Origin: Phaeobacter sp. HF9A
GTDB lineage: Bacteria; Pseudomonadota; Alphaproteobacteria; Rhodobacterales; Rhodobacteraceae
Direction: 5' to 3'
Assembly (NCBI RefSeq): GCF_011806385.1
Contig: NZ_JAATOX010000012.1
Coordinates: 1-57,942 of the forward strand
Length of the DNA stretch: 57,942 nucleotides
Shown here: positions 5,936-29,876 of the stretch, one piece after another
How positions within the stretch are numbered: the stretch's first letter is position 1
How the letters are laid out: every line of letters begins with the position of its first letter
Translations under genes and position numbers: made by a program
The notes under the pieces: model-generated
Told to the model about the DNA's origin: nothing
Database searches by the model: none
The model's input: the letters and a program-made list of their open reading frames with translations, nothing else

Positions 5936-5968
5936 GATCAGCCCCACTTGAGTGGTCCAAATTGAAAG

Positions 5969-6817: not shown

Positions 6818-6986
6818 TCAAACCGGACCACCCGATGGGGGCACGCCAGAAGACCAAGACCGGAACAGAGCTAACCTAAGTTAGCGGACTCCAAGGGGAG
6901 CAGGTCAGTCTGTTCGGTGTCGTTCTAGCAGGCGTTGCGATCTGGATGGTTGTCAACTGAATGCATGTGCTTGCGGTTGCCCCTCG

Positions 6987-7062
6987 GCCCCGGAGACCAT
7001 CGTCCCGATGGACCAAAGGCCAGTCATGCACTAACTTTCAAAATGGACCTCTCAGGTGGGGG
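6987..7062 (+). pseudogene. IS3-family OrfB extreme C-terminus plus element end (third copy)
   Basis: Sixteen codons (APETIVPMDQRPVMH and stop) end at 7034. They are followed by ACTTTCAAAATGGACC and a GGTGGGGG motif, matching the end sequence of the minus-strand copy. Nothing else of the element is left. Confidence 0.7.
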
Positions 7063-7155
7063 CCAATCAGCGTCTATGCCGGGCTTCTGGCCGGCACATG
7101 ATCGTCGGGAGCGGGCATTGCGACACTGCGGCCGGGTGCCGCTTACTTTTGGCGC

Positions 7156-7728: not shown

Positions 7729-7746
7729 TTTGTCTCTTTCATTACG

Positions 7747-7758
7747 ATACGACTGTAT
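7747..7758. promoter_or_regulatory. Candidate TetR operator between the divergent genes
   Basis: ATAC-GACT-GTAT, a perfect 4-bp inverted repeat with a 4-bp spacer, sits in the 85-bp divergent region. Position and symmetry fit a TetR-type operator, but the arms are short and chance is possible. The MFS gene has a separate strong AAGGAG at 7801-7806. Confidence 0.35.
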
Positions 7759-7813
7759 TTATATGCGCAGCCATGTGATGCAAGCCTAACACGACTCTCC
7801 AAGGAGACCCCAG

Positions 7814-9277
7814 ATGCTTCCCCGCAACCGTTGGCTCGTGCTGGCGATCGTCTCAAGCTCCCTGTTCCTGATCGTCATCGACGTGACGGTGCTTTATACC
7901 GCACTGCCACGCCTCACACAGGATCTTGCCGCGACGGCCTCCGAGAAACTGTGGATCGTGAACGCATATCCGCTGGTTGTAGCGGGCCTCCTGCCAGGCA
8001 TGGGCGGTTTGGGAGACCGGGTCGGCCACAAGCGCATGTTCCTCGCCGGGCTGGCGGTCTTCGGTCTCGCCTCGCTGGCCGCAGCTTTTTCCCCGACGCC
8101 CACGGCGTTGATCGCGGCACGGGCGCTGCTGGCCGTGGGTGCATCGATGATGATGCCGGCCACCTTGTCGCTGATCCGCCTTACCTTTACCGACGAGAAA
8201 GAGCGCGCCTTCGCCATCGGCATCTGGTCCGCCGTCGCCTCCGGCGGTGCGGCCGCGGGGCCGGTCGTCGGAGGCCTCTTGCTGGAGTGGTTTTGGTGGG
8301 GGTCGGTCTTTCTCATCAACGTGCCAGTCATCGTTGCAGCCCTTGTCGGCGGCGCGCTGATACTGGTCAATCGGCGTCCCGAAATGTCGCATCCCTTCGA
8401 TCTTGCGGGCTCGGCCCAGGTGATGATCGGGCTGGTCGGTCTGGTCTACGCGATCAAGGAGGTCGCCAAGAGCGACCCGTCCTTCGCAGCCGCGGGCATC
8501 GCTCTTGCCGCCGGAGCCGTCGCCATATGGGCTTTCGTGCGCCGCCAGCGGTCGAGCGCGCATCCGCTAATCGACTTCGCGCTCTTCCGCAATGCGCGCT
8601 TTGCCTCTGGTGTGGTTGCGGCCCTGGTGGCCGCCGGAGCCCTGATCGGGGTCGAGCTGGTCTTCAGTCAGCGCCTGCAGCTGGTCCTCGGCCTGTCGCC
8701 GCTGGAGGCAGGGTTGCTGATCCTGCCGATTTCGGCCGCGTCCTTCATAGCCGGCCCGCTGACGGGCCTTGCGATGCCGCGCCTTGGGGAGGTCCGAGTG
8801 CTGACCTCGGCGCTGGCGCTGACGGGCCTTGCGCTGCTGGCTTTCCTGCTGACACATCAGGGACCGACAAGCCTCTGGCTTTCGGTCCTGGCGGTCATGG
8901 GCTTCGGAGTTGGAGCCACCATGACGGCCGCGTCAAGCGTGATCATGCTATCCGCACCAGAGGATCAAGCTGGCATGGCAGCCTCGGTGCAGGAGGTTTC
9001 GTTCGAACTCGGTGGCGCCGTCGGTATCGCCATTCTCGGCAGCGTCATGACCGCGCTCTACACCCGAGCCATGACCGTTCCTGCGGGGCTCAGCGCAAAC
9101 GTCACCGACAGCATCGATCAGGCGTTACTGATTGCCGAGAGCTTGAACGGCAGCGCTGCCGCGCACCTCACGTCGCTCGCCCGGGACGCCTTCGACGAAG
9201 CTTTCGTCGGCGTGATTGCAGTTGCTTCCGTCGTAGTCCTAGGCGCGGCGCTCTGTATCTGGCGCCGGAGGACGTAA
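7814..9277 (+). CDS. MFS drug efflux transporter, DHA2 (14-helix) family
   Basis: 487 residues with about 14 hydrophobic segments, the usual size for DHA2 drug:H+ antiporters (QacA/SmvA/EmrB type). Motif A is visible in the loop after helix 2 (GGLGDRVGHKRM, about residues 64-75). The DHA2-typical segment GPVVGGLLLEWFWWGS..FLINVP lies at about 150-175. Asp near residue 23 (LIVIDVTVL) is the usual helix-1 acidic residue. AAGGAG 8 nt upstream supports the ATG at 7814. It probably exports cationic or amphipathic toxicants. It is paired with a divergent TetR repressor and the pair is flanked by IS3 remnants, suggesting lateral acquisition. The substrate is unknown. Confidence 0.92.
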   Translation: MLPRNRWLVLAIVSSSLFLIVIDVTVLYTALPRLTQDLAATASEKLWIVNAYPLVVAGLLPGMGGLGDRVGHKRMFLAGLAVFGLASLAAAFSPTPTALIAARALLAVGASMMMPATLSLIRLTFTDEKERAFAIGIWSAVASGGAAAGPVVGGLLLEWFWWGSVFLINVPVIVAALVGGALILVNRRPEMSHPFDLAGSAQVMIGLVGLVYAIKEVAKSDPSFAAAGIALAAGAVAIWAFVRRQRSSAHPLIDFALFRNARFASGVVAALVAAGALIGVELVFSQRLQLVLGLSPLEAGLLILPISAASFIAGPLTGLAMPRLGEVRVLTSALALTGLALLAFLLTHQGPTSLWLSVLAVMGFGVGATMTAASSVIMLSAPEDQAGMAASVQEVSFELGGAVGIAILGSVMTALYTRAMTVPAGLSANVTDSIDQALLIAESLNGSAAAHLTSLARDAFDEAFVGVIAVASVVVLGAALCIWRRRT

Positions 9278-9298
9278 CATACCCGTCACGCCATGCGC

Positions 9299-9488
9299 GG
9301 CTTCAGCCCCTCTCGCCGCCATAGCCGTTCCACGCGGTTGTCATTCACATACCAACCCGTATCTCTCAGCAGCGCCACATTCGCCGCAAACTGGCCTGTG
9401 GCCTTCCGGCGCTTCGGCATTTTCGTATCCCCTCAATAGGTTTGGGCTATACCTGAGCCGACTGTGCAGTTTTCTGGAACCACCTCAC
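9299..9488 (-). mobile_element. Internally deleted IS3-family relic (left end, orfA start fused to orfB piece)
   Basis: Read on the minus strand: an element end with GGTTCC, then ATG starting MPKRRKATGQFAANV (an orfA-like N-terminus). It is fused directly to [25 protein letters not shown], an orfB segment nearly identical to that of the copy at 5969 ([25 protein letters not shown]). The region between is deleted. The relic has the opposite end from the copies at 5.9-7.1 kb, so remnants of related elements bracket the TetR-MFS pair. Confidence 0.75.
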
Positions 9489-9524
9489 GGTTCAGAACAT
9501 CGCGGGGCGGACCGACCCTAGAAC

Positions 9525-10352
9525 TCAGTCACCTTGGTTGATTGTGTCGTCGTGTGATGACAGCCTCTCTGCTCCGCTCGTCACCACGATCAGCAGCGAT
9601 ATCGCAGCCATGACGGCCGCGAAGACCAGAATACCTTCGAAGTGGCCCCGATAGACATCGATGTAGCCGCCAAACCAAGCATTTCCCGCGCCGTGCATGA
9701 CCGCCGCCACAAGAACGCTTCCGCGCGTGTTATTGAAGACCCAAGTATATTGCACGGACCATGCAATGCAAAATAGCGTGTAGCCGCCGACAGCGGTCAG
9801 CCAACCTCCGTCCTGAAGCCACTGGCTTTGGACCGTGCCGGGGGCGAGGAACAGGGGAATATGCCACATGCCCCAGCACACCCCAATGACAAGGCTGGCG
9901 CCAAGGGCCGTGTGCTTGCGTTTCAGCCGCGGCAAGGCGAAACCGCGCCAGCCGAATTCCTCGCCGAAACCGGCCAGCAGGGTCAAGATCAGGATCATCG
10001 GGATCACCTGCCAGATCGGTTTCAAGTGACTCCAATCCGGGTATGGTCCGCCCAGGGCATGATAGAGATACAGGGAGGCAACCGCGGGAAAGATCGGAAA
10101 GAACAGGGCAAAGGCCCACCAGAACCAGCCGACGCGCCATATCAGTGCCCTGCGCATCAAGTCCCGGACGCCGGCCCAACCATTTTCCATTGCGACAAGC
10201 AGGAACGCCGCAAGGCTGGCGCTGAACGCGCCAAGCTGGCTGATCCCGGATGGCCGGGCGCCGGAGGCAACGGCCAGGATAGGTGCCGTCCCGAGAGCCA
10301 TGGCAACAACGGTCAAGAGGACAGCAGGATATGCTTTCAGCAGAGACGGCAT
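9525..10352 (-). CDS. CPBP-family intramembrane metalloprotease
   Basis: 275 residues with about eight hydrophobic segments. The three CPBP (CAAX protease and bacteriocin-processing, Abi) motifs are intact: EEFGWRG at about residues 130-136 (Glu-Glu and Arg), WHIP near 162 and MHGAGNAW near 219. Family members cleave prenylated or other membrane proteins, or protect against bacteriocins. No bacteriocin gene is visible nearby. It lies between the IS relic and the AraC regulator, divergent from the latter across about 400 bp. Substrate unknown. Confidence 0.88.
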   Translation of the reverse strand: MPSLLKAYPAVLLTVVAMALGTAPILAVASGARPSGISQLGAFSASLAAFLLVAMENGWAGVRDLMRRALIWRVGWFWWAFALFFPIFPAVASLYLYHALGGPYPDWSHLKPIWQVIPMILILTLLAGFGEEFGWRGFALPRLKRKHTALGASLVIGVCWGMWHIPLFLAPGTVQSQWLQDGGWLTAVGGYTLFCIAWSVQYTWVFNNTRGSVLVAAVMHGAGNAWFGGYIDVYRGHFEGILVFAAVMAAISLLIVVTSGAERLSSHDDTINQGD

Positions 10353-10751
10353 GGATGGCCAGCCTTTCGGAAATTGCCTAGGGATCAGCCAGCATCGCTG
10401 TGCGCAGCCCTAAACTTTGGCGAAGCTATTTGATCTGTCGAAAAGGTTTCATGGATATGCGCTTTGCAAAATCGGAATGCCGCCCTTTCGGATCAAGAGT
10501 AGCGGTTTGATTTTTTATGCGGCAGGATGCGCCCGACGCTGCGCTGCGTGATATGTCTTGGAAGGCCAAAGACGGCATGAGATTGTCTCCTGCCACTGCG
10601 TGTCCAAACACCATGCCCCGGTCCAAGAGGCAGTTGCCCTCGGCGCAGCAGAAAGTCGCAACTTTGTTTTCCGCATGTCTCGGCCGGTTTGGTGTCGACA
10701 TTCATTTCAAGAGTGCCTTGCACATCAAATGATACAGAAAGGCTGACTGCC
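10353..10751. other. Long divergent intergenic region upstream of the AraC regulator
   Basis: About 400 bp. Short frames exist on both strands (for example 10517-10732 plus and 10426-10701 minus), but none has family features or a good ribosome binding site. I take them as chance frames. The region must hold promoters for the CPBP gene and the AraC-type gene. I recognise no specific operator. Confidence 0.45.
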
Positions 10752-11924
10752 GTGATTGCTGTGGATATCGCGACCGTAACATTGGTGACGATGACATTCG
10801 CCATTGCTCTGTTCGGTGCGAGCGTGATGGCTGGGGATCAGGGACAGCGCCAGCTGAACAGTGGCTTGATCGCGTTTCTCCTGATTGCGGCATTCGACAA
10901 TGTCGCGGTCTTGATCGGACTGTGGGACGCATATGACGCGCTGCTTTGGATCGGTAGCCTCGAACCCGTTGTCATTTTTCTCTATGGCCCGGCCATTTAT
11001 ACATATGTTTTGACAGTGACAGGAACGGCCCCCTCTCGGCGCCATGTCGCTCTGCTGTACGGCGGTCCGATGGCGGTTGCGCTCTTGCTCTTTGCCGCCG
11101 CAGCCCAGTTGCCGCGCGACGTGCGGCTGGCCATGATTTCATCCATGCCAGTGTCGGACCCCGCGCGGGCGGATCTGGCTGGAATGATCATGATCGCGAT
11201 GCAGTATTCCTTTGTCGCGATCACCTTTGGCTACCTTGTCGCGTGCTGGCGCGCTCTTGATGACAACTTGCGCCGGGTCGGAGCGCTTTTTTCTTCCATC
11301 GAAGACCGCACGCTCAGGTGGCTGCGTGTGGTGATGATCCTCATTTTCCTTGCCTGGGTGCAGGCCGCGTTGCAGCCCTTGCTCGCCGGGACCCTGGAAG
11401 ATGGCGATTGGGCTGAGAGGATCGACGCTGGGATAACCCTGACCTGGGTGACGATGCTGGCGTTTTTCGGCATTCGCCAGCGTCCCGTACTACAGGAACC
11501 CGACCGGCGGGCGACCGCGGTTCCGGCGGTGGACACGGTCACCGAAAAATACGCGCGCTCCGCCTTGGGCGCTGACAGGATGCAGAAACTGGGGGAGCGT
11601 ATCACGCTCTTGATGCAGCGAGATGCGCTGCACCGTGACTCCGCTCTGTCGCTGCGCCGTCTTGCCGAACAGGTCGGAGCCAGCCCGAACTATGTTTCGC
11701 AGACGCTCAACGACCACCTGGGGGTCAGCTTCTTTGATTTTGTCAACGGTTTCAGGGTCGACGAGGCAGAAGAACTGATGCGCACCACAGATCGCAGCAT
11801 CACCGAGATCGCGCTGGACGTCGGGTTCAACTCCCGGTCCACCTTCAATGCCGCCATACGCAAGCACCGTGGCATGTCTCCCTCCGAGCTGCGCAAAGGG
11901 GGAAAGGCGCACCGCGCCGATTGA
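10752..11924 (+). CDS. AraC-family regulator with N-terminal membrane domain
   Basis: 390 residues from a GTG at 10752, chosen because AGAAAGG lies about 9 nt upstream; the frame is also open to an ATG at 10689. Residues 1-235 contain about seven hydrophobic segments, a membrane sensor-like half. The C-terminal ~100 residues hold the two AraC helix-turn-helix motifs: LSLRRLAEQVGASPNYVSQTLN, then ITEIALDVGFNSRSTFNAAIRKH with the conserved GMSPSELRK end. Membrane-bound AraC regulators of this shape sense envelope or external signals (family knowledge). It sits 135 bp upstream of an OmpV-like porin gene and is the likely regulator of the three genes that follow. Confidence 0.9.
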   Translation: MIAVDIATVTLVTMTFAIALFGASVMAGDQGQRQLNSGLIAFLLIAAFDNVAVLIGLWDAYDALLWIGSLEPVVIFLYGPAIYTYVLTVTGTAPSRRHVALLYGGPMAVALLLFAAAAQLPRDVRLAMISSMPVSDPARADLAGMIMIAMQYSFVAITFGYLVACWRALDDNLRRVGALFSSIEDRTLRWLRVVMILIFLAWVQAALQPLLAGTLEDGDWAERIDAGITLTWVTMLAFFGIRQRPVLQEPDRRATAVPAVDTVTEKYARSALGADRMQKLGERITLLMQRDALHRDSALSLRRLAEQVGASPNYVSQTLNDHLGVSFFDFVNGFRVDEAEELMRTTDRSITEIALDVGFNSRSTFNAAIRKHRGMSPSELRKGGKAHRAD

Positions 11925-12059
11925 CCGAACCGTCCCGTCCGAACGTTGAAATGTCCTGTCCTGCCTGACCGGACGCAGAGCGGCTTCCGCTCTGTCATGG
12001 ATCTGTTGGTGCGCCTGACCGGCGACACCTTCGAGCGAACAGGCAAAAGGACGGTAGGA

Positions 12060-12824
12060 ATGAACCGAGATATACGCGACCGCTGTTGCGAACTGACCAT
12101 GATATTTCTTGTTGCTGTGTGTTTGGACCCTGGCCAGGCGCGCGCACAGAGCAAGGGGTCCGGCTTTTCGATCGGCCTCTATGCGGCGACGGCAGTCTCC
12201 CCCTTTGGCGCTGCGGCGTCTGACAATGCCCTGATACCGGCCTTCGATTATACGAGGGGCCGTTTCAGCATTGGCACCTCTGGCCTTGGCTTTGATGTGG
12301 TCAGCACTGACCAGATCACCCTCACCGCCAAGCTGGCTCCTAGAACCTTTGCCGACCCCACTTCGGTGCCGGGCCTTGGCCATCTGGACCGCGACATCGC
12401 CCTGGAGGCCGGGGTGGCGGCAGAGCTGCGCTATGGCCGGATTTCGACCGGCATCGAGGCGCTCACCGATGTTTCCGACACTCACAGGGGGACAGCGGTT
12501 CGGGCCAGTGTTGGAACCGCCTTCACCCCCGCGCCGCGGTGGGGCATTGCGCTAGAGGCCGGAGCCACCTGGATGGATGGAAATCTGGCGACCTACAGCT
12601 TTGGCGTCCTCCCAAGCGAGGCGCGCGGCACGCTCGCCGCATATTCGGTTCAGAATCTGGTGGTGCCGTCGATCGGGGTCCGGTCGAACTATGAGCTTAC
12701 CGACCGGCTCGCGCTCGTCGCGGGGGTGTCGGTCGATTTTCTTCCAAGGCAGGCGACCGACAGTCTGATCGTGAAACGGGACACTCTAACCTCTGCGATG
12801 ATCGGGTTGCGTTTTGAGTACTGA
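12060..12824 (+). CDS. MipA/OmpV-family outer-membrane protein
   Basis: 255 residues from an ATG at 12060, preceded by a purine-rich GGACGGTAGGA. The frame extends upstream but that part has no signal-peptide character. Residues 1-30 look like a signal peptide ending at ARAQ. The rest is alternating beta-strand sequence (GFSIGLYAAT, RFSIGTSGLGFDV, and so on) ending in GLRFEY with the terminal aromatic typical of outer-membrane barrels. MipA/OmpV proteins are scaffolds or pore-like barrels (family knowledge). The stop overlaps the start of the next gene, so expression is coupled. Confidence 0.82.
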   Translation: MNRDIRDRCCELTMIFLVAVCLDPGQARAQSKGSGFSIGLYAATAVSPFGAAASDNALIPAFDYTRGRFSIGTSGLGFDVVSTDQITLTAKLAPRTFADPTSVPGLGHLDRDIALEAGVAAELRYGRISTGIEALTDVSDTHRGTAVRASVGTAFTPAPRWGIALEAGATWMDGNLATYSFGVLPSEARGTLAAYSVQNLVVPSIGVRSNYELTDRLALVAGVSVDFLPRQATDSLIVKRDTLTSAMIGLRFEY

Positions 12825-13635
12825 GGCAGCCCATCAGCGACCGGCGCGCAGGACAGAGGATGGCTCCGCGCAGCTCCCACAATGGTCGGCGGCGGGCCTG
12901 CTGGGGCTTTGGCTTCTGGTCACCTTGCCGATGGCGGGATTGTCCCTCGGTCTTGCCCCCTATCTCATTGCGCGCCTTCCCGATGCGGACCCTGGGCTGA
13001 TCTTCTGGAAGACCATCATCGCGGGCATGGCCTGGCAAACCGTGGTCTCCATCGGGGTGCTCGCCTGGGAGGGGCAGGGGTGGACCCTCGACGCACTCCG
13101 GCGCGGTCTTTGGCTGCGCGCGCCATCTTTGCACGGCACAAAACGGGCCAATTGGGCTATCCTCTGGAGGTTGGTTCCTGTCGGTGTTCTCTGTGTTCTT
13201 GCCGTTGATAGCGCCTTTGGATGGCTTGATGCGGTGCTTGCCGCGCGGTTGCCGGAATGGCTGGTGCCATCTTACGCAGACATCACCGCTCTCGCCACCG
13301 CGGCGAACAAAGGCAACTGGAGCCTGCTTTGGATCGCCCTCGTGTCGAGTGTCTTCAACTATGGTCTGGGAGAGGCGCTCTTCTTTCACGGGATTCTGCT
13401 GCCCAGGATGGTGCAGACCTTCGGTCGCCGGGCCTGGGCCGTCAATGCCGTGGCCTTTGGGCTCTATCACGCGCACAAGGCCGCTGTCTGGCCCACGGTC
13501 ATCCTGTCCTGCGTCGCGTATAGCTGGCCGGCGCAATACACGCGCTCGATCTGGCCCGCGCTGCTGATCCACGGCTTTGAAGGTCTCGTCCTGATCGCAG
13601 CCGTGCTCCTGGTCGTTCTGGGCGGCCCTCTTTGA
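12814..13635 (+). CDS. CPBP-like intramembrane protein with degenerate active site
   Basis: 273 residues from a TTG at 12814, overlapping the OmpV gene by 11 bp. About seven hydrophobic segments. CPBP motifs 1-3 are recognisable as GEALFFHGILLPRM (about residues 186-199), LYHAHK and LIHG. The normal Glu-Glu pair of motif 1 is Glu-Ala, so one catalytic glutamate is missing while both histidines are kept. It may be an inactive or altered protease acting as a membrane partner, or a divergent active enzyme. Coupling to an outer-membrane barrel and an exported hydrolase suggests an envelope role. Specific function unknown. Confidence 0.72.
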   Translation: MSTEAAHQRPARRTEDGSAQLPQWSAAGLLGLWLLVTLPMAGLSLGLAPYLIARLPDADPGLIFWKTIIAGMAWQTVVSIGVLAWEGQGWTLDALRRGLWLRAPSLHGTKRANWAILWRLVPVGVLCVLAVDSAFGWLDAVLAARLPEWLVPSYADITALATAANKGNWSLLWIALVSSVFNYGLGEALFFHGILLPRMVQTFGRRAWAVNAVAFGLYHAHKAAVWPTVILSCVAYSWPAQYTRSIWPALLIHGFEGLVLIAAVLLVVLGGPL

Positions 13636-21308: not shown

Positions 21309-22358
21309 TCATCGTTCCGCCGGTGCAGCGGCCAGTGCAGGAAAGCGGGCGACGGCCTGCCGCGCCTCCGCTGTCCAGAGATCAAGCGCCTCGCGATCCT
21401 GCTCTGGCAGCGCTCGGTGCCGAGGGGCGCGCGGCTGCGGGATCGGGCTGGCAGCATCAAGCCATGCTGCATCCTGCGAGATCTGCAGAAAGTCTGCCAA
21501 CCCCGCAAGTCGTGGGCGCGGCTGCTCAATGATGTCTTCGTAGCGCAAAACATGCAGCTGCTCCGGCGGGGTTTGTGCCAATCCACGTAGCCCGGCCAGG
21601 GTGATGGCGGACCAGAATGCCGCACAATCCTGCAACGAGGGCGGCTGCGCCATAATCCGGCGCATGGGCAGCAAGCGCGCGCCCAGCAGCTCCGCCAGCC
21701 AGATCCGACGGGAGCGCCCCAGATGCGCGTCGGCAGAGAGTACATCAACACCGGCGCGGCGGGCCTGTTTCCACATCCAGATCACAAATCGCGCTGGTTT
21801 GTAATTCTGCATCGACAACGCTGTATCCCGCCCATCGCGCAGCAGCAGAACCTTTTTGGCCTCGGGAAACAGCGCGTTCAGCGTAGGGGCCGCCAACAGG
21901 GAGCCGCCGGAGCGTTCGATCCAGAGGCTCGCATTGCTGTCTTGGGCAAGACAGTGGAACAGGTGCCGATAATGGTCCGCCCGCCTCTGCCTGGGCGCGG
22001 CGCAGATCATCGGCGCGAGCTGATCAAAGACCGGGTCCGGGTCATCAAAGAGATGCGGCAGCGTCACCGCCAGCAGGGGCGGGCAATTGTCGGGATCAAA
22101 CCGGCGACGCGCAACCCGGTGATAAAGGAACTCCTCCGGGGCGACGCTCGGATTGGCCAGCTGCCGCAGCAGCGGCGTCGGGCGGGAGAGCTGCCGCCAG
22201 AACGCGGCACCGCTGATATGCCCCGGCAGCAAGGCCCGCGACGCCTGCATGGTGAGCAGTTCAGACAGGCTCAACACCTCGGGATGCATCCGCAGGATCT
22301 GCGAAAGCATGGTCGAACCACTGCGCGACGCGCTGAGAAGAAACGCCCCCCGCATCAT
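21309..22358 (-). CDS. Sulfotransferase-family protein
   Basis: 349 residues from the ATG at 22358, which overlaps the preceding stop as ATGA; an open extension to 22394 lies inside the upstream gene. The 5'-phosphosulfate loop of PAPS sulfotransferases is seen as LLSASRSGSTMLSQIL (about 5-20). The 3'-phosphate site is seen as VLLLRDGRDTALSM (about 173-186). The late segment LHVLRYEDIIEQP is also typical. It would transfer sulfate from PAPS to a hydroxyl or amine of the product made by the four upstream enzymes. It is the last gene of the KASIII operon and convergent with the racemase gene. Confidence 0.85.
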   Translation of the reverse strand: MMRGAFLLSASRSGSTMLSQILRMHPEVLSLSELLTMQASRALLPGHISGAAFWRQLSRPTPLLRQLANPSVAPEEFLYHRVARRRFDPDNCPPLLAVTLPHLFDDPDPVFDQLAPMICAAPRQRRADHYRHLFHCLAQDSNASLWIERSGGSLLAAPTLNALFPEAKKVLLLRDGRDTALSMQNYKPARFVIWMWKQARRAGVDVLSADAHLGRSRRIWLAELLGARLLPMRRIMAQPPSLQDCAAFWSAITLAGLRGLAQTPPEQLHVLRYEDIIEQPRPRLAGLADFLQISQDAAWLDAASPIPQPRAPRHRALPEQDREALDLWTAEARQAVARFPALAAAPAER

Positions 22359-23632
22359 CGTGCCGCCCACCGCATATCCGGGCCAAGGCGGCACTCGACA
22401 CGGCGCAGTTTGCGACTCGGATCAAAGGTGAGCGTTGCCCTTTTCTGGGTGATCCGGCACGTGGCCTGACGGCAGGCAAGGAGCTGATCAACAGCGGTCG
22501 CGGCGGCTTGTGCGGCCTCGTCAGGCAGGTCGGTCGTCAGCCGGAGCTCGATCTCATCGACAGCAACCTGGATCAGCCGGAAATCCGTGATCCGCCGGTC
22601 GCTGTCCAGAATTGCATTGCGCAGCACATCTGGCGTCAGGAACACCGGCCCCGCCGCGCCGGTCAGGTGAAAACAATCATCCACGCGGCCGACGACCTCC
22701 TCGACCAGACGCAGCGGCGAGCCGCAAGCGCAGGGCCGCTCTGCCAGGCGCAACAGGTCGTTCATCCGATATCGCGCGAGGATCTGCGTCTGTCGCCGGA
22801 AACTGCTGATCACCGGATTGACCAGTCCGTTGCCAGCTGGCTCAAATTCAAAGAACATCGACTCCTCCGCCAGATGCAGTCCGCCCTGTCGGCAGGTCAC
22901 CGCCAGCAGCCCTTCGGTCGCCATGTAGATCTGTTCCAGCGCTTGCCCGAAACAGGTTTCGATCACTGACCGGTCCATCGGGTCCAGCGTTTCTGCCGCT
23001 GAAAAGATACGCTGCGGGCGCAGCCGGAACTGCTGTTGCGCGACATGGCGCAGGAGCTTTGGCGGTGCGATAAGGACGCTGGGATCGAAGGCCTCCAGCT
23101 CTGTGCGCCAGTTCTCCGGCCCGCTGCGCAGATCAAAGAACCGCAGCTGCATCAGCGGCAGGCTGCGCGCGCTGTCATAAAGCCGGGTGTCCTGTGGCAG
23201 GATGATCGCGACCCGCTGGCGACGGCCCCACAAGCCGCCCATGGTCTTGGCCAGCACGGTGCCAAGCCAGCGGTAGCGCTCGGGCTCGGAAATCACGAAC
23301 ACCCCGCGATTGCCGCTGGTGCCGGTGCTGGCGCCGACGGTGAAATCCCCGATGCGGCAGGTGTCGCCGATGGCCTGCCAGGCCTGATCGGCAGAGATCC
23401 CGGCACGGTTGTATGCAGCGAAATCCGCCATCAGTGTGGCCTTGTCGCGGATCGGCAGGTCTTGCAGCTCGGTTGCCCCGCCCTGATAGGCGCGGACACC
23501 TCTAACGTCGCGCGCCAGCCAGCGCCGGAGCATGCGGTGCTGCCAGTGGTCAAACGCTGCGCGGCTCAACCCCGGACGGGCCATGCGCGTGGCGGTCACA
23601 AAGGCCGAGGCAGTCTCCAATGCGGCCCTCAT
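22355..23632 (-). CDS. F390-synthetase/PaaK-like adenylate-forming enzyme
   Basis: 425 residues. The nucleotide-binding Ser/Thr/Gly loop is GASTGTSGNRG (about 99-109). Downstream, QIYMATEGLLAVTC (about 235-248) resembles the adenine/Tyr-x-x-x-E motif, and VVGRVDDCFHL the hinge Asp motif of phenylacetate-CoA ligase-like proteins. It fits the group annotated as CoF390 synthetase-related putative adenylate-forming enzymes. It would activate a carboxylic acid as acyl-AMP and perhaps pass it to CoA, an amine or an alcohol. It overlaps both neighbours by 4 bp, so it is translationally coupled. Confidence 0.82.
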   Translation of the reverse strand: MRAALETASAFVTATRMARPGLSRAAFDHWQHRMLRRWLARDVRGVRAYQGGATELQDLPIRDKATLMADFAAYNRAGISADQAWQAIGDTCRIGDFTVGASTGTSGNRGVFVISEPERYRWLGTVLAKTMGGLWGRRQRVAIILPQDTRLYDSARSLPLMQLRFFDLRSGPENWRTELEAFDPSVLIAPPKLLRHVAQQQFRLRPQRIFSAAETLDPMDRSVIETCFGQALEQIYMATEGLLAVTCRQGGLHLAEESMFFEFEPAGNGLVNPVISSFRRQTQILARYRMNDLLRLAERPCACGSPLRLVEEVVGRVDDCFHLTGAAGPVFLTPDVLRNAILDSDRRITDFRLIQVAVDEIELRLTTDLPDEAAQAAATAVDQLLACRQATCRITQKRATLTFDPSRKLRRVECRLGPDMRWAAR

Positions 23633-24471
23633 GCCCCGGCCTCGCTGGAAGGCAGGTCATAGCGGGTGGCGGCAGGGTCATGGCAGAGCATCAGTTCACC
23701 GCCCGCCGCCTGAAACCTGCGCAAGGCCGCAGCGGTGCTGCCGAGTGCCGTCGGATCATCCGCAATCCACCCCGCGGCCCCCCCCGGAGAGCGACCCGGG
23801 ATAAGTGCTGCCAACAGCCATTGGGCATCAACCGCGTAGAGCAGCGGCGGGTCGAGCTGCGGGAAATAGAGGCCAAACTGCCCGGCGGCGTGACCGGGCA
23901 GCGCCACCGCCAACACGCTGCCATCGCCAAAGAGATCCCCGGCCTCGGAAAAGCCGACAGGCAGAGCGGCAGCTTTCGCCGCAGGCATCTGCTCCAGAGG
24001 AGACAGCCGGGCCTCAAAATCCGCCGGAAGCAGTTCGGGAAATACGCCGTGACGCAGGTTTGCCCAGGCTCGGTTTTGCTTGATCCCACGCCACGCGGCG
24101 GCGCTGGCAATAAACCTGGCCTTGGGAAACAGCCGCAGACCGGAGACATGATCGGCGTGGAAATGGGTGAGGATCACGCAAGCGATATCCGCAGGCCCAA
24201 GCCCGTGGCGGGCCAGAAAGACCTCTGGCTGTTCGGCGGCGTTCATTTGGGGGCGCAGAAGCTGGCCATAGGCGCGAAGGGGCAGGCTGCGACCGGGGGC
24301 CGCAAGGGAATGCGCGGTGTAGCCGGTATCAATCAGCACCGGCCCAATCACCGGATGTCTGACCAGCCCATAACGAACCCGCAAGCGGATCCGGCGCCAG
24401 CCCCCGCCCTTTAAGAGCAGGGCCTCGGGCGCGGCGACCCAAGCGCTATTGGCAAAAAGCGGCTGCATCAC
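23629..24471 (-). CDS. Metallo-beta-lactamase-fold hydrolase
   Basis: 280 residues with the HxHxDH zinc motif (His103, His105, Asp107, His108) in ILTHFHADHVSGL, a later metal His in ALPGHAAGQF and Asp in YAVDAQWL. The fold is the lactonase/glyoxalase II-like MBL superfamily, cytoplasmic by its lack of a signal peptide. In this operon it could hydrolyse a thioester or lactone intermediate (inference). ATGA overlap with the upstream SDR gene and with the downstream adenylating gene. Confidence 0.85.
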   Translation of the reverse strand: MMQPLFANSAWVAAPEALLLKGGGWRRIRLRVRYGLVRHPVIGPVLIDTGYTAHSLAAPGRSLPLRAYGQLLRPQMNAAEQPEVFLARHGLGPADIACVILTHFHADHVSGLRLFPKARFIASAAAWRGIKQNRAWANLRHGVFPELLPADFEARLSPLEQMPAAKAAALPVGFSEAGDLFGDGSVLAVALPGHAAGQFGLYFPQLDPPLLYAVDAQWLLAALIPGRSPGGAAGWIADDPTALGSTAAALRRFQAAGGELMLCHDPAATRYDLPSSEAGA

Positions 24472-25454
24472 GGGGCGCCCTTGGCAAAGGTCATGTCCAG
24501 CCCCTCGGCAAAGCGGACCTGGGGTGACCAGCCCAGGACGCGCCGAGCCTTGTCGATATTCAGGCTTTGTGCATAGGCAAATAGCGCCAGCCCATAGCGT
24601 GTGACCAAGGGTTCAGGCTGGCCCGGGCTGTATCGGGCGATGCCCTCCGCCAGCGCGGCCATGGCCATCAGCGGGCGTAACGGCAGGCTGCGCCACCTCA
24701 GTGCGACGCCCGCCCGTGTGCAGGCTTGCCCGGCGATTTCGGTCACCGGCAGCACCTCGCCGCCGGAAATATTGAAGATTTCGCCCTCTGCCGATTGATC
24801 CGCCAGAAGGGCCGCAAGTGCCGCGCCCGCGGCATCGCTCACATGGGTCAGGTCAATGCGCGCCTGCCCCCCTCGCAACAGGGGCAGGGGCCTGCTGCGC
24901 GCAGCGGCCAGCAGACGGGGCAAAAGGGCGCTGTCCCCGGCGCCATAGATCCCACGCGGGCGCAGCACAACGGGGCCCAGATCGGCATGCGCGAGCACCA
25001 GTTGCTCTGCGGCGCGTTTGCTGGCGGCATAGGGATTGAAGGGGCGGGGCAGCGGCATGTCTTCGCTCACCCCCAGCTGGTCCTGCATCGCGAAATAGAC
25101 CGAGGGGCTTGAGATCAGCACAAATCGCTGCACGCCCTGGCTGCGGGCAAATCGGAGGAGATTGCGCGTGCCCGTGACATTGGCCCGCTCGAAATCCGCG
25201 CGCGGACCAAAGGGCGCAGACAGGGCCGCGCAATGCAGCACTGATGTGACTTCGGCCAGTTCCGCCGGGACCTGCTCCGGCAGGGGTGTGGCCAGATCCC
25301 AGCGCAGAACCGGGTGGCCCTCTGCGGCCAGATCTGCGCATTTTTCAGGGTCGCGCCCCTGCGCCACCACCGGCAGATCCCGCGCGCGCAGCAGACGCAG
25401 GACCTCTGCCCCCAGAAACCCGGTCGCGCCGGTGACCAGAACGCGCCCCGCCAC
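24468..25454 (-). CDS. NAD(P)-dependent epimerase/dehydratase (extended SDR, OleD-like)
   Basis: 328 residues from a GTG at 25454. I chose it because the Rossmann motif VLVTGATGFLG begins five codons later, and the open extension to 25595 is antisense-like sequence inside the upstream gene. The catalytic Tyr-Lys pair is in NPYAASKRAAEQL, with an upstream Ser (SSPSVYF). Extended SDRs of this kind oxidise or reduce beta-hydroxy/keto groups or epimerise sugars. Next to a KASIII-like gene, a 3-oxoacyl or beta-keto acid reductase role like OleD is attractive (inference). One base separates it from the KASIII stop. Confidence 0.83.
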   Translation of the reverse strand: MAGRVLVTGATGFLGAEVLRLLRARDLPVVAQGRDPEKCADLAAEGHPVLRWDLATPLPEQVPAELAEVTSVLHCAALSAPFGPRADFERANVTGTRNLLRFARSQGVQRFVLISSPSVYFAMQDQLGVSEDMPLPRPFNPYAASKRAAEQLVLAHADLGPVVLRPRGIYGAGDSALLPRLLAAARSRPLPLLRGGQARIDLTHVSDAAGAALAALLADQSAEGEIFNISGGEVLPVTEIAGQACTRAGVALRWRSLPLRPLMAMAALAEGIARYSPGQPEPLVTRYGLALFAYAQSLNIDKARRVLGWSPQVRFAEGLDMTFAKGAP

Positions 25455-25455
25455 G

Positions 25456-26445
25456 TCAGTATTCCAGCGCCATGCCGCCAAAGGACACGCCCGCAGATGT
25501 GCCCAGGAACAAGAGCTTGTCGCCCGCGTGAATGCGCCCCTCCCGGCGCGCCATATCCAGCACAAAGGGGATCGAGGCGGCGATCTGGTTGCCATAGTCG
25601 CGGGTGATATCCATCACGATGCTCGGATCAAACCCCGTCTGGCGGATCATATGCGCCAAAGCCGCCGGGCTGGCCTGATGCGGCACCACCAGGCTGACCT
25701 CGTCGCGGGTCCAGCCCGCGCGGTCGAGCAAATCTGTCACGAAGCCGCCGAATTTCTGCGCTGCGAGGCGGAACAGCGGCTTGCCCTCCATCTGAAACAG
25801 CGCGTGCCGGGCAAAACGCTCAGGATCGCGGGCGAAGTCGAACCTTGTGCCACCGGCGGCCAGCGCGCAGGCGTCATAAAGCGACGGATAGCTGCGCATC
25901 AATGTGGCTTTCAGCGTGCCGCCAGCCTCGGCTGAACCGGTAACGACCGCCGCCGCCGCGCCATCGCCAAACAGCGCTGCCACCTCCGGGTCCTGCTGCC
26001 AGGGCAAGGCGCGCGAGGCGACCTCGGAGGAGAACACCAGCGCCCTCTGAACCTCGCCGCAGGTAATCATACGCGCCGCCGTGCCAAAGGCCGTGAGGAA
26101 GCTGAGGCAGGTGCTGTTGACGTCAAAAGCCTGCGCCATGCCATCCGCAATGCCAAGCCGCGACATGACCAATGGCGCTGTGGCCGGGATCGGCTGATAG
26201 GGAACCGCGCATCCCGCCAGAACCAGATCAATGTCGCTGGCCGCCAGCCCCGCATCGCGCAGGGCAGCCTCGGCTGCCGCCACCGCGAGATCAATCTGGC
26301 TCTCTTCCTCGCAGACATAGCGCTGCGCCACGCCGACCGCTGCGGAGAGTTGCCCACAGGGCAGGCCAAGTGCGTCCTCATACTCTGCTGTCGTGCGGCA
26401 GGTATGGGGCAGGGCCCGCCCCGTGCCTGCGATCTTAATCCGCAT
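25456..26445 (-). CDS. KASIII/FabH-like 3-oxoacyl-ACP synthase
   Basis: 329 residues from the ATG at 26445, preceded by TAGGA; the frame extends to 26505 without homologous sequence. The thiolase-fold Cys-His-Asn triad is complete: Cys113 (STCLSF), His256 (VPHQAS) and Asn286 (DYGNQIA). FabH, OleA and related enzymes perform a Claisen condensation starting from acyl-CoA. This one is not in a fatty-acid gene cluster but heads an operon with SDR, MBL, adenylating and sulfotransferase genes. A role in a specialised metabolite or unusual lipid is therefore more likely than housekeeping fatty-acid initiation. Confidence 0.88.
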   Translation of the reverse strand: MRIKIAGTGRALPHTCRTTAEYEDALGLPCGQLSAAVGVAQRYVCEEESQIDLAVAAAEAALRDAGLAASDIDLVLAGCAVPYQPIPATAPLVMSRLGIADGMAQAFDVNSTCLSFLTAFGTAARMITCGEVQRALVFSSEVASRALPWQQDPEVAALFGDGAAAAVVTGSAEAGGTLKATLMRSYPSLYDACALAAGGTRFDFARDPERFARHALFQMEGKPLFRLAAQKFGGFVTDLLDRAGWTRDEVSLVVPHQASPAALAHMIRQTGFDPSIVMDITRDYGNQIAASIPFVLDMARREGRIHAGDKLLFLGTSAGVSFGGMALEY

Positions 26446-26720: not shown

Positions 26721-26773
26721 TCCCGGCTCTTGATCTCTTGTGGTGGTGCCATAATTGTGCAACTGATCGCGCT

Positions 26774-26933
26774 GTCGGTTTCCTTCGGGAATGAAAAGGG
26801 AATCCGTTCTGGCCTTGGCCAGAAAACGGAACTGCCCCCGCAACTGTAGGCGGCGAGTGCCTCTCTGCATGCCACTGGGATACCCCGGGAAGGCGAGAGG
26901 TGTGACGACCCGTCAGTCAGGAGACCTGCCGAC
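26774..26933 (+). promoter_or_regulatory. Cobalamin riboswitch
   Basis: The conserved B12 aptamer elements occur in order: AAAAGGGAA (26794-26802), the B12-box GCCCCCGCAACTGTA (about 26835-26849), GCCACTGGGA near 26870-26879, GGGAAGGC near 26887 and GTCAGGAGACCTGCC (about 26915-26930). The outer stem pairs GTCGG (26774-26778) with CCGAC (26929-26933). A GC-rich stretch between 26950 and 27000 probably forms the expression platform before the BtuF-like gene. It would shut off the downstream importer when adenosylcobalamin is plentiful. Confidence 0.95.
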
Positions 26934-27052
26934 AAGAGTGAAACCACGACCGGACGGGGTGTGCCGCGGCGGGAAACCTGATGCGGCCATTTCGCCGCCC
27001 TCCGTTTCGCGTCTTGTCCCTGATGGTCCTATTATCTGACGGGATGGATTGG

Positions 27053-28063
27053 ATGAGACTGAGTATTTTGACGGCCGCGCTGCTGGCCGGTGCGACACTG
27101 CCCCTGCATGCGCAGGACACGGACTACCCCCTGACACTGATGAACTGCGGCGTCGAGGTCAGTTTTGACGCCGCGCCGGACAGCGCCGTGACCATCGGCC
27201 AATCCGCGACAGAGATCCTCTATTCCCTTGGCCTTGCGCCCAAGGTCTCGGGCACCGCCGTCTGGTTCAACCCGGTTCTGCCGGAATACGCCGAAATCAA
27301 CGCGGGGATCGAGCGTCTGGCCGACAATGACCCCAGCTTTGAAAGCGTGGTCGCCAAGCGCCCCGGGCTGGTTGCGGTGCAATATGAATGGCACGTCGGC
27401 GAAAACGGCATCGTCGGCACGCGGGAGATGTTCGGCGATCTGGGCATCCCGACCTATATCCTGCCCGCCGATTGTGACACCAAGGACAACTCCACCGGCG
27501 GTGACGGAACCCGCATCGGTGCCTTCGAGACGGGCTCGGTCTATAAGGGCATCCGGGAGCTGGCGGAGATTTTCGACGTGAGCGCCGCGGGCGAGGCCCT
27601 GGTTGCAAAGCTGCAAGCCACCGAGAGCGCGGCGATCACCCGGGCCGAAAGCCTGGATCTGCCGGAAGATCTCTCGGCGCTGTTCTGGTTCTCCTCTGCC
27701 GATCTTGAAATCGACCCCTATGTCGCCGGGCGGCTCGGCGCGCCAGGTTACATGATGTCAAAGCTGGGGATCGAGAACGTCATCCAGTCCGATGAAGAAT
27801 GGCCGACGGTCGGATGGGAAAGCATCGCCCGCGCCGATCCTGATATTCTCGTCATCGCCTATATGGACCGCCGCCGTTTTCCGGCGGATGATGTGGAGAA
27901 AAAGCTCGAATTCCTGCGCAGCGACCCCGTCACCAGTCAGATGACCGCCGTGCGCGAAGGACGGATCGTGCAGATGGACGCCCATGCAATGAGCGCGACG
28001 ATGCGGTCGATCTATGGGCTGCAAACCCTGTCCGAGGCGCTCGCGGAGATGTCTTTCAAATGA
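27053..28063 (+). CDS. Cobalamin-type ABC importer binding protein (BtuF-like)
   Basis: 336 residues from the ATG at 27053; the ATG at 27044 and the open extension to 26981 are alternatives. Residues 1-20 are a signal peptide (LTAALLAGATLPLHAQ). The rest is a class III Peripla_BP_2 fold: AVTIGQSATEILYSLGLA near 42-60, VVAKRPGLVAVQYEW near 98, WESIARADPDILVI near 258. Fold and permease match vitamin B12 and Fe-siderophore systems. The riboswitch directly upstream decides for a corrinoid. It binds the ligand in the periplasm and docks on the BtuC-like permease. Confidence 0.88.
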   Translation: MRLSILTAALLAGATLPLHAQDTDYPLTLMNCGVEVSFDAAPDSAVTIGQSATEILYSLGLAPKVSGTAVWFNPVLPEYAEINAGIERLADNDPSFESVVAKRPGLVAVQYEWHVGENGIVGTREMFGDLGIPTYILPADCDTKDNSTGGDGTRIGAFETGSVYKGIRELAEIFDVSAAGEALVAKLQATESAAITRAESLDLPEDLSALFWFSSADLEIDPYVAGRLGAPGYMMSKLGIENVIQSDEEWPTVGWESIARADPDILVIAYMDRRRFPADDVEKKLEFLRSDPVTSQMTAVREGRIVQMDAHAMSATMRSIYGLQTLSEALAEMSFK

Positions 28064-29118
28064 CCATGGTGGCCGTGCCCACCCGCATTGAGGCAAGGCG
28101 CAGCATCTGGCTGGCGCCTTGCCTTCTGGGGCTGACGATCCTGGCCGGGACCGCCATTGGCGAGACCCGGCTGCCGTTTGAGACGGTGCTGCAGACGCTG
28201 GCGAACCACCTTTGGGGTGCGGGCTATGCGGTGGATGGCATTGATGCCGGGATCATCTGGAGCTATCGCCTGCCGCGCGCCATCGTGGCGGCCTGCTGTG
28301 GCGCGGGGCTGGCGCTGACCGGCGTCGTTCTGCAAGCGCTGCTGCGCAATCCGCTGGCAGATCCCTATCTGATGGGCCTCTCGGCGGGCGCCTCGACCGG
28401 CGCGGTTCTTGTGACCGTCGCGGGCGTGGGAGGCGGCGCGGTCTCCATGTCGCTCGGCGCCCTGAGCGGGGCGCTGCTCGCCTTCGGCTGCGTTGTGCTT
28501 CTCGCCCATGCGGTGAGCGGCGGCGCAGGCGGCGGACGCGCGGCCCAGTCCGCCGCCGCGATCATCCTCGCCGGGATCGCCGGCTCGCAGATGTTCAACG
28601 CGCTCACTGCCTTCACCATTGCCCGTTCGGCCAATGCCGAGCAGGCCCGCAGCATCATGTTCTGGCTCATGGGCAACCTCTCGGGCATCCGATGGGACGA
28701 CGTGGGCCCCTGCGTGGCGGTTTCCCTGATGGGCGTGGCGCTCTGCCTGTGGCACCGGCGCGGGCTCGATGCCTTCACCTTTGGCGCGGACGGCGCAGCC
28801 TCGCTGGGTATCAACGTTCGGGTGCTGCGCGGCAGCCTGATTACCGCAACCGCAGTCATGGTCGGAGTGCTGGTGTCCAAGGTCGGTGCCATCGGCTTTG
28901 TCGGGCTTGTGGTGCCCCATGCCATGCGCTTTTTGGTGGGCACCCGTCACGACCGCCTGGTGCCGGCCTCAGCGCTGGCGGGCGCGGTGTTCCTGGTCGC
29001 CGCTGACGTGATCAGCCGCATTATCGTGCCGGGTCAGGTTCTGCCCATCGGGGTGGTGACCGCCCTTGTGGGCGCGCCGGCCTTCGCGCTGATCCTTGTG
29101 CGGGGGGCGCGGACATGA
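28060..29118 (+). CDS. FecCD/BtuC-family ABC permease
   Basis: 352 residues with about ten hydrophobic segments, the size and pattern of FecCD transporters. Landmarks: YRLPRAIVAACCGAGLALTGVVLQ near 69-92, NPLADPYLMGLSAGAS near 97-112 and the coupling loop with VGFVGLVVPH-like residues (IGFVGLVVPHAMR near 277-290). It overlaps the binding-protein stop by 4 bp and the ATPase start by 4 bp. Confidence 0.93.
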   Translation: MTMVAVPTRIEARRSIWLAPCLLGLTILAGTAIGETRLPFETVLQTLANHLWGAGYAVDGIDAGIIWSYRLPRAIVAACCGAGLALTGVVLQALLRNPLADPYLMGLSAGASTGAVLVTVAGVGGGAVSMSLGALSGALLAFGCVVLLAHAVSGGAGGGRAAQSAAAIILAGIAGSQMFNALTAFTIARSANAEQARSIMFWLMGNLSGIRWDDVGPCVAVSLMGVALCLWHRRGLDAFTFGADGAASLGINVRVLRGSLITATAVMVGVLVSKVGAIGFVGLVVPHAMRFLVGTRHDRLVPASALAGAVFLVAADVISRIIVPGQVLPIGVVTALVGAPAFALILVRGART

Positions 29119-29876
29119 GGATCGAAGTGCAGCAGCTGTCGGCAAAGATCCACCGCACCCCGCTCTTGAAGGCTATTTCCCTCGCTATCGAGAGCGGCGA
29201 ACTCTTTGGCCTCGTTGGACCCAACGGGTCGGGCAAGTCCACCCTGATGCGCTGCCTTGCCGGGCTGCAACGTCCTGCCGCGGGTCGCGTTCTTGCAGAT
29301 GACAGCGACCTTGCGCGGATGCCTGCCCGGCAACGCGCCCGCCGGATTGCGCTGGTCGCGCAGCAGGCCGACACCACGGAGCGTCTGACGGTTCGCCAAG
29401 CGGTGGAACTGGGCCGCACGCCCTATCTCTCGCCGTTGCGGGGGTGGGGGCAGGCGGATGGCGCCGCCGTCGAGCGCGCGCTTGCCACGGTAGAGATGAC
29501 CGGTTTCGCCGACCGCCTTTGGCACACGCTTTCAGGCGGCGAGCGCCAGCGCGTCCACATCGCCCGCGCCCTTGCCCAGGACCCAGAGCTGCTGCTTCTG
29601 GATGAGCCGACCAATCACCTCGACATCCGCCACCAGCTTTCCCTGATGGCGGTGGTGCGGGAGCTGCCGATCACGCGCATCGTTGCATTGCACGATCTGA
29701 ACCAGGCCGCCGTTTGCGACCGGGTCGGGGTGATGCGGGGGGGACGGCTTGTGGCCGCAGGCCCGCCGCACGAGGTGCTGAACGAGGCCCTCTTGGCCGA
29801 GGTTTTTGGCGTTGCCGCAACCCGTCACGCGGCGCCGGATGGCACGCCGCGGCTTCATTTTTCACATGCTTTGTAA
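29115..29876 (+). CDS. FecE/BtuD-family ABC ATPase
   Basis: 253 residues with Walker A GPNGSGKS (about 35-42), signature LSGGERQRVHIARAL (about 139) and Walker B LLLLDEPTNHLD (about 159). The switch His is in VALHDLN. It completes the three-gene corrinoid importer under riboswitch control. Confidence 0.93.
   Translation: MRIEVQQLSAKIHRTPLLKAISLAIESGELFGLVGPNGSGKSTLMRCLAGLQRPAAGRVLADDSDLARMPARQRARRIALVAQQADTTERLTVRQAVELGRTPYLSPLRGWGQADGAAVERALATVEMTGFADRLWHTLSGGERQRVHIARALAQDPELLLLDEPTNHLDIRHQLSLMAVVRELPITRIVALHDLNQAAVCDRVGVMRGGRLVAAGPPHEVLNEALLAEVFGVAATRHAAPDGTPRLHFSHAL

What the first reader, a model, noticed from the sequence alone, without database searches (positions are those of the whole stretch)
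21309..26445. Five-gene operon: KASIII-like synthase, SDR, MBL hydrolase, F390-like adenylating enzyme and sulfotransferase
All five genes overlap by 4 bp or abut by one base, so they are expressed as one unit. The catalytic residues of the KASIII, MBL and SDR members are intact. The set resembles the logic of OleA/OleD plus an acyl-activating enzyme, but the adenylating gene is PaaK/F390-like rather than OleC-like. A sulfotransferase ends the operon. There is no PKS, NRPS or fatty-acid gene around. The simplest reading is a pathway that condenses acyl units, reduces the beta-keto product, activates or releases it and sulfates it. The product is not one I recognise.
Basis: partly seen in the sequence, partly recalled or inferred. 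Interest (0 to 1): 0.75.

Follow-up and report, generated by a model that had tools for sequence, protein, structure and literature searches.

The report
Widespread lipid-like cassette with swappable ending
Four of these five genes are a uniform enzyme set found in many bacteria, including some E. coli, for which no description was found, and the fifth gene, here a sulfate-adding enzyme, is a swappable finishing step, which suggests a family of related fatty molecules with different polar ends.

Summary
In detail: five minus-strand genes, 26445-21309, joined by a 1-base gap and 4-base overlaps, with intact catalytic motifs. The first four (KASIII, OleD-like reductase, lactonase-type metallo-hydrolase, PaaK/F390-like adenylating enzyme) kept order and strand in 74 of 74 named relatives with enough upstream sequence. 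In 295 sampled family genomes the KASIII was found in 11, always beside the adenylating gene. The cassette also occurs in Bacillota, Fusobacteriota and 672 of 5426 complete E. coli genomes. The KASIII is separate from FabH, which the genome also has. The sulfotransferase is not part of the core: it fills a slot after the adenylating gene that elsewhere holds GNAT+Rieske+ATP-grasp, a DUF3419 (BtaA-type) gene, a glycosyltransferase, or PAP2+hydroxylase+desaturase. Best reading, inferred: the core builds a hydroxy-acyl, lipid-like backbone and the slot enzyme installs its polar end, here sulfate. Ten searches of one open paper library found no description. Product, substrates and order of steps are unknown.

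The parts
25456..26445 (-). KASIII-like condensing enzyme, core gene 1 (nearest model PRK07204)
   Evidence: ACP_syn_III and ACP_syn_III_C; best NCBIfam model NF005541, 276.7 bits, under its cut-off of 402; C113/H256/N286; separated from FabH rows with 99/95 support
24468..25454 (-). extended SDR / 3beta-HSD-like reductase, core gene 2, OleD-like
   Evidence: best NCBIfam model OleD, 176.6 bits, cut-off 580 not met; Epimerase Pfam; GATGFLG and YAASK
23629..24471 (-). metallo-beta-lactamase-fold hydrolase of the AHL-lactonase side, core gene 3
   Evidence: Lactamase_B; profile of 35 rows hits AHL lactonases best among solved structures, 1.2e-22; seven metal-ligand positions invariant in 35 rows
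22355..23632 (-). PaaK/F390-synthetase-like adenylate-forming enzyme, core gene 4
   Evidence: TIGR02304, 242.9 bits, cut-off 251.9; adenylation motif residues invariant in 11 rows, T103 in all but one or so
21309..22358 (-). sulfotransferase, variable slot-5 (end) gene
   Evidence: Sulfotransfer_3 and Sulfotransfer_1; orthologues directly after the adenylating gene in L095, L099, L101, L107; on the opposite strand upstream of the KASIII in L021, L022, L126, L129, with one shorter frame between (TetR in L126 and L129)

Best explanation
The operon is a biosynthetic cassette for a lipid-like hydroxy-acyl metabolite. Shown here: a conserved four-gene core plus a variable end gene. Inferred: the KASIII condenses an activated, probably medium- or long-chain acyl group with malonyl-ACP; the OleD-like reductase turns the beta-keto group into a hydroxyl; the metallo-hydrolase frees the acid from its carrier (or opens a lactone); the PaaK-like enzyme adenylates that acid so it can be passed on to a thiol or amine; and the slot-5 enzyme caps the product with a polar end. 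In this genome the cap would be sulfate from PAPS. In relatives it would be something else, so one backbone would give a family of related molecules with different ends.
For: Core KASIII-SDR-MBL-ADE in order in 74 of 74 named loci with enough upstream sequence, the four genes together in 10 of 12 family relatives found by the adenylating gene and in 9 of 9 other phylum-sample genomes. Cassette KASIII in 11 of 295 family genomes (own included), all 11 with the adenylating gene beside it. Slot 5 follows the adenylating gene with a possible 4-base overlap in 57 of 61 GNAT and 4 of 4 sulfotransferase cases; so do the glycosyltransferase in L020 and the DUF3419 gene in L112. Several slot-5 partners are lipid enzymes: DUF3419 (BtaA family, recalled), PAP2, FA_hydroxylase (best model OlsE, 66.6 bits, cut-off 475), FA_desaturase. 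Sulfotransferase and the GNAT/Rieske/ATP-grasp set were never together in the 75 named loci. GNAT and ATP-grasp were not found in 7 of 8 genomes searched, among them the 6 whose cassette has the sulfotransferase and no GNAT set (the seventh, G293, has no cassette). Strong sulfotransferase orthologues lie in 4 of 11 cassette genomes and 0 of 284 others, Fisher p 1.1e-6; with the weak G123 hit counted against, 5e-6. KASIII residue 86 is Ile where the two aligned FabH rows have Phe, a position that, as I recall, limits FabH to short primers.
Against: No product, substrate or expression data. None of the five genes is a carrier protein. GNAT, Rieske and ATP-grasp partners fit a peptide- or amide-type small molecule as well as a lipid. 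The sulfotransferase could act on something other than the core product. Of the 75 named loci, 7 have neither sulfotransferase nor any gene of the GNAT set; 2 of these 7 (L091, L102) have DUF3419 and 5 (L063, L096, L108, L110, L114) have no end gene that I identified. The DUF3419 label is scattered on the tree no better than shuffled labels (500 of 500 as low), and L112 and L113 have it together with a Rieske or GNAT gene, so 'one cap per cassette' is not strict. In G221 a sulfotransferase lies 18 kb from a cassette that has the GNAT set.
Confidence: 0.5

Rival explanations
1. The core makes a small diffusible signal or antibiotic (alkylquinolone-, AHL- or lactone-like logic) rather than a structural lipid. 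The metallo-hydrolase acts as lactonase or thioesterase on it, and slot 5 decorates it.
For: The MBL profile matches AHL lactonases best among solved structures. KASIII + MBL + ligase recalls PqsD/PqsE/PqsA (recalled), and a 'PQS biosynthetic enzyme' and PqsC are among weaker KASIII structure hits. A TetR gene lies beside the cassette in 3 of the 9 annotated plasmid records looked at (L126, L127, L129). The distribution is sparse: 11 of 295 family genomes.
Against: DUF3419, PAP2, fatty-acid hydroxylase and desaturase partners are lipid enzymes. Signal receptors and exporters near the cassettes were not searched for, so their absence cannot be claimed.
Confidence: 0.25
2. Dissociated olefin synthase: KASIII and SDR make a beta-hydroxy acyl chain, the sulfotransferase sulfates the beta-hydroxyl as in CurM or Ols, and hydrolysis by the MBL drives loss of CO2 and sulfate to a terminal alkene.
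For: CurM sulfotransferase (4gbm) and a 'Polyketide synthase' chain (4gox, an Ols sulfotransferase domain as I recall) are among the nearest solved structures of P0005. The gene order supplies keto-synthase, reductase, sulfotransferase and hydrolase.
Against: Tyrosylprotein sulfotransferases score slightly better with the family profile, and all matches are weak and partial. The adenylating enzyme has no role in this route. Most cassettes looked at have no sulfotransferase.
Confidence: 0.07
3. True Ole-type chemistry: the adenylating enzyme closes a beta-lactone as OleC does, and the MBL opens or decarboxylates it in place of OleB.
For: The SDR's best model is OleD. The operon pairs a thiolase-superfamily condensing enzyme with an ATP-using ANL enzyme. 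The MBL is lactonase-like.
Against: The KASIII scores higher with FabH-type models and structures (184.7 and 149.5 bits) than with those that I recall as OleA-type (119.3 and about 95 bits), and OleD's cut-off is far from met. The adenylating enzyme is of the PaaK/F390 branch and gave no Pfam hit at E 0.01.
Confidence: 0.1
4. The sulfotransferase sits beside the core by chance and has an unrelated task.
For: Only 4 of 75 named loci with enough downstream sequence carry it.
Against: The same orthologue group is attached to separate core lineages (4 label changes on the tree, at least 3 forced), in two different positions, and strong orthologues occur only in cassette genomes of the 295 sampled.
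Confidence: 0.05

Closest known systems
OleABCD long-chain olefin pathway
   Same: Thiolase-superfamily condensing enzyme, OleD-like reductase and an ATP-using ANL enzyme in one cluster
   Different: KASIII scores higher with FabH-type than with the models and structures I recall as OleA-type; PaaK/F390-like instead of OleC; metallo-hydrolase instead of the alpha/beta hydrolase OleB (make-up of Ole recalled)
TIGR02304 'F390 synthetase-related protein' (aden_form_hyp, NCBIfam)
   Same: The adenylating gene is at the edge of this model (242.9 against 251.9 bits); the E. coli, Paenibacillus and Ketogulonicigenium cassettes carry genes annotated with this name
   Different: The model's name gives no function; the window and 5 of the other 12 family hits (L012, L013, L015, L016, L017; 236 to 249 bits) score a little under its cut-off, 5 score over it
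Housekeeping FabH
   Same: Family and Cys-His-Asn triad
   Different: 184.2 bits against TIGR00747's 292.1 cut-off, own FabH 404.7; separate on the tree
CurM / Ols sulfotransferases (terminal alkene formation, recalled)
   Same: Sulfotransferase near a ketosynthase and a reductase; among the nearest solved structures
   Different: Free-standing, weak and partial match, and the operon has an adenylating enzyme
Roseobacter sulfur-containing aminolipid (SalA)
   Same: Sulfur-containing lipid in the same bacterial group
   Different: Needs SalA, an LPAAT/PlsC-family acyltransferase; the main text does not contain the word sulfotransferase (PMC8319176, passages)

Membership tests
OleABCD olefin pathway | OleD orthologue above its curated cut-off | tested here: not met
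   176.6 bits against 580
OleABCD olefin pathway | OleB-type alpha/beta hydrolase and OleC-type AMP-binding enzyme in the cluster | tested here: not met
   MBL-fold hydrolase and TIGR02304-like enzyme instead; no Pfam hit for P0004 at E 0.01
OleABCD olefin pathway | Head-to-head condensation and long-chain olefin product | not testable with these tools
   needs enzyme assay or lipid analysis
FabH (TIGR00747) | score above the curated cut-off and grouping with FabH | tested here: not met
   184.2 against 292.1 bits; separated from FabH rows with 99/95 support
FabH (TIGR00747) | Cys-His-Asn catalytic triad | tested here: met
   C113, H256, N286 invariant in 9 aligned rows
TIGR02304 F390 synthetase-related | score above the curated cut-off | tested here: not met
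   242.9 against 251.9 bits, near miss
TIGR02304 F390 synthetase-related | ANL adenylation motifs (recalled) | tested here: met
   S102, G104, T105, S106, G107, E240, D292, K408 invariant and T103 nearly so in 11 rows
AHL-lactonase-type MBL | HxHxDH plus H, D, H metal ligands (recalled) | tested here: met
   invariant in 35 rows
AHL-lactonase-type MBL | above the cut-off of a named lactonase model | tested here: not met
   best, AttM model, 50.8 bits against 390
CurM/Ols olefin-forming sulfotransferase | clearly nearest to CurM/Ols among sulfotransferases | tested here: inconclusive

The most novel reading that the evidence does not exclude
An undescribed, apparently horizontally spread class of bacterial lipid-like molecules: one four-enzyme core makes a common hydroxy-acyl backbone, and the gene or genes in a slot after the adenylating enzyme decide the polar end or chain finish (sulfate, aminocarboxypropyl, sugar, amino-acid/acyl, or hydroxylated and desaturated chain). 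The class would reach from marine Rhodobacterales and Mesorhizobium to E. coli, Paenibacillus and Fusobacterium.
Probability: 0.4. Interest if true: 0.82.

Novelty: new variant of a known kind. Interest (0 to 1): 0.66.

Why it matters
A four-gene biosynthetic core this uniform, in several phyla and in about one in eight of the complete E. coli genomes held (672 of 5426, among those listed Nissle 1917, ATCC 25922 and ABU 83972), with no description in the papers searched, points to a common but unrecognised molecule. The swappable end gene makes the chemistry testable by comparison: strains that share the core and differ in slot 5 should make products that differ by a predictable mass. For the window's lineage that is plus 80 Da (SO3) over the uncapped form.

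Tried and rejected
Rejected: KASIII as the only or housekeeping FabH; the five genes as a fixed unit. Considered and lowered: Ole membership, CurM/Ols-type alkene formation, the roseobacter SAL pathway. Led nowhere: ten paper searches listed no paper that I recognised as treating the cassette (one search gave 38 papers, 10 listed); the Pbo phaseolotoxin cluster, listed, was checked in passages and has a different make-up. The congener G293 lacks the cassette, but only short scattered matches to the window's flanks were found there, so no empty site could be compared. Promoter scan: none found; the 9 terminator-like sites (4.4 expected) all lie inside the genes.

Limits of the counts. The profiles used were built from the 80 named loci themselves (seeded by phmmer with the window's proteins), so one search is not an independent search. 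Searches are the broader samples. Of 50 plasmid records with a match, 40 were listed and 11 looked at. Genome-wide absence of GNAT rests on one query protein and of ATP-grasp on one model, both at E 1e-10; Rieske was not searched genome-wide. The sulfotransferase test was thought of after seeing the neighbourhoods, and its p-value ignores relatedness. Rows dropped: trees used rows thinned at 80% (KASIII, 123 to 64) and 85% identity (adenylating enzyme, 113 to 69), KASIII stretches under 280 aa left out; 8 of the 69 had no slot-5 label. G221 (L023) was labelled by its GNAT set, not by its distant sulfotransferase. L027 was labelled DUF3419 because L091 appears to be the same contig (same length, 65957); its own downstream gene was not scanned. 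Of the DUF3419 rows only L112 and L102 were run against Pfam; L091 and L113 fell in the same cluster.
Full report
What is there. Five minus-strand genes run from 26445 to 21309: KASIII, extended SDR, metallo-beta-lactamase-fold hydrolase (MBL), PaaK/F390-like adenylating enzyme (ADE) and sulfotransferase (ST). Pfam and NCBIfam confirm the families; ADE has no Pfam hit but reaches 242.9 bits with TIGR02304, 'F390 synthetase-related', just under its 251.9 cut-off. The expected catalytic residues are present in the window and invariant in the relatives aligned (ADE 11 rows, MBL 35, KASIII 9). Operon GC is 66.1% against 61.4% for the window. The cobalamin riboswitch upstream is on the other strand.

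Not the housekeeping enzyme. The genome has a FabH on another contig at 404.7 bits with TIGR00747; the operon KASIII scores 184.2, cut-off 292.1. All 15 genomes searched in that call have a FabH over the cut-off, apart from the cassette KASIII. In a tree of 64 rows, the 54 cassette KASIII rows are one side of a branch with 99/95 support, apart from nine FabH rows and one other, long-branched own-genome KASIII. Rooting is unknown, so this says 'separate', not 'which came first'. OleA, DarB and PqsD were not put on the tree; model scores stand in for them.

A conserved four-gene core. TIGR02304 at E<=1e-20 is in 13 of 295 sampled family genomes, own genome included. Of the 12 relatives, 10 have KASIII, SDR, MBL and ADE together; L024 and L031 have a distant ADE alone. 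From the other side, the KASIII at E<=1e-45 is in 11 of 295, own included, and these are exactly the 11 with ADE beside it. In the phylum sample, 10 of 398 have ADE at E<=1e-40, own included, and the other 9 all have the four genes (in L143 the SDR is in two pieces). A collection search gave 80 named loci: in all 74 with at least 3.2 kb upstream of ADE the order is KASIII-SDR-MBL-ADE on one strand. The other six begin at or near the end of the stored sequence; what they hold of the core is in the same order. SDR/MBL can overlap by exactly 4 bases in 78 of 78, MBL/ADE in 70 of 78, KASIII/SDR in 19 of 76 with 51 more between -1 and +5.

Range. tblastn of ADE matched 50 plasmid records; 11 were looked at. 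The cassette is in Paenibacillus and Pontibacillus (with an ATP-grasp gene inside), Paraburkholderia, Ketogulonicigenium, Paracoccus, Rhizobium, Burkholderia, E. coli and, with KASIII last, Fusobacterium. L133 (Pseudomonas amygdali) has ADE and ATP-grasp with no KASIII found, and in L128 (Pseudomonas sp. Leaf58) the genes are scattered among other frames. The E. coli seven-gene stretch is in 672 of 5426 complete E. coli genomes, 671 with at least 80% of it; the listing includes ABU 83972, Nissle 1917 and ATCC 25922. In the two records opened it lies between narI and purU.

The fifth gene is a slot. Of 75 named loci with at least 4 kb downstream of ADE, 62 have a GNAT-like gene, 57 a Rieske protein, 62 an ATP-grasp protein (PRK06849-like), 4 the ST, and 7 none of these; ST and the GNAT/Rieske/ATP-grasp set never occur together. 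Two of the 7 (L091, L102), and also L112 and L113, have a DUF3419 gene directly after ADE (Pfam run on L112 and L102); L112 has a Rieske and L113 a GNAT gene besides. The other five (L063, L096, L108, L110, L114) have no end gene that I identified. DUF3419 is, as I recall, the family of BtaA, which makes the head of betaine lipids. In L020 slot 5 is a glycosyltransferase that overlaps ADE by 4 bases. In E. coli and three or so kin it is PAP2, fatty-acid hydroxylase and desaturase (the kin were scanned in L136 only). On a 69-row ADE tree the ST label needs 4 changes, at least 3 forced by well-supported branches, and the five slot-5 labels together 9; DUF3419 alone is as scattered as shuffled labels.

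The sulfotransferase link. In the same 295 genomes, ST matches at E<=1e-20 are in 5: own, G058 and G088 (45 and 43% identity, upstream of the KASIII on the other strand), G221 (54%, same contig, 18 kb from the cassette) and G123 (28%, no cassette found). The four strong ones are all in the 11 cassette genomes; Fisher p is 1.1e-6, or 5e-6 if G123 is counted against. Neither figure corrects for relatedness, though the sample holds 294 genera, and the test was set up after the pattern was seen. GNAT and ATP-grasp were not found genome-wide in own, G293, G058, G088 and the genomes of L095, L099 and L107, and are present in G221. So ST stands in place of that set in the ST cassettes examined and coexists with it in G221.

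Mechanism. Shown: gene content, order, motifs, co-distribution, and alternative end genes. Inferred from families: KASIII makes a beta-ketoacyl chain; SDR reduces it; MBL releases or opens the product; ADE activates an acid; slot 5 caps. Ile86 in the KASIII, where the two FabH rows carry Phe, would fit a longer acyl primer (role of this position recalled). The nearest solved structures of ST are tyrosylprotein sulfotransferases and the CurM and 4gox chains, all weak, so alkene formation by sulfate loss stays possible and unlikely. The MBL is of the AHL-lactonase side, which keeps a signal-type product open.

Literature. Ten searches of the open paper library listed nothing recognisable on the cassette, TIGR02304 or the E. 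coli stretch. Passages, not whole texts, were read of PMC8319176, PMC11631085 and PMC8473136. Papers outside that library were not seen, so 'undescribed' is limited to it.

Noticed in passing
L135 (E. coli ABU 83972) 3372-10253; L124 9140-16021: The same core with PAP2, OlsE-like hydroxylase and desaturase sits between narI and purU in the two records opened; the stretch is in 672 of 5426 complete E. coli genomes.
   Followed up: partly
window 26759-26947: Cobalamin riboswitch (118.8 bits) on the + strand ahead of what reads by eye as a substrate-binding/permease/ATPase set at 26981-29876, divergent from the operon.
   Followed up: no
window 39197-41460: AMP-binding ligase and thiolase frames on the minus strand, overlapping, 13 kb from the operon; a second acyl-activating pair.
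   Followed up: no
L032 (own genome C32) 8495-13237: Another KASIII-like cluster: alpha/beta hydrolase, KASIII-like protein, and an 813-aa frame with a PLP decarboxylase and an acyl-CoA dehydrogenase middle domain.
   Followed up: no
L069 (Flavobacteriaceae MAG): Its cassette nests with Ruegeria and Palleronia on both trees: recent transfer or a mis-binned contig.
   Followed up: no
L128 and L133 (Pseudomonas megaplasmids): Divergent ADE and ATP-grasp genes scattered among hypothetical genes; in L133 no KASIII was found.
   Followed up: no
L126, L127, L129: A TetR-family regulator lies next to the KASIII in these three records (divergent in L126 and L129, same strand upstream in L127); I recognised none beside the window operon, by eye only.
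   Followed up: no
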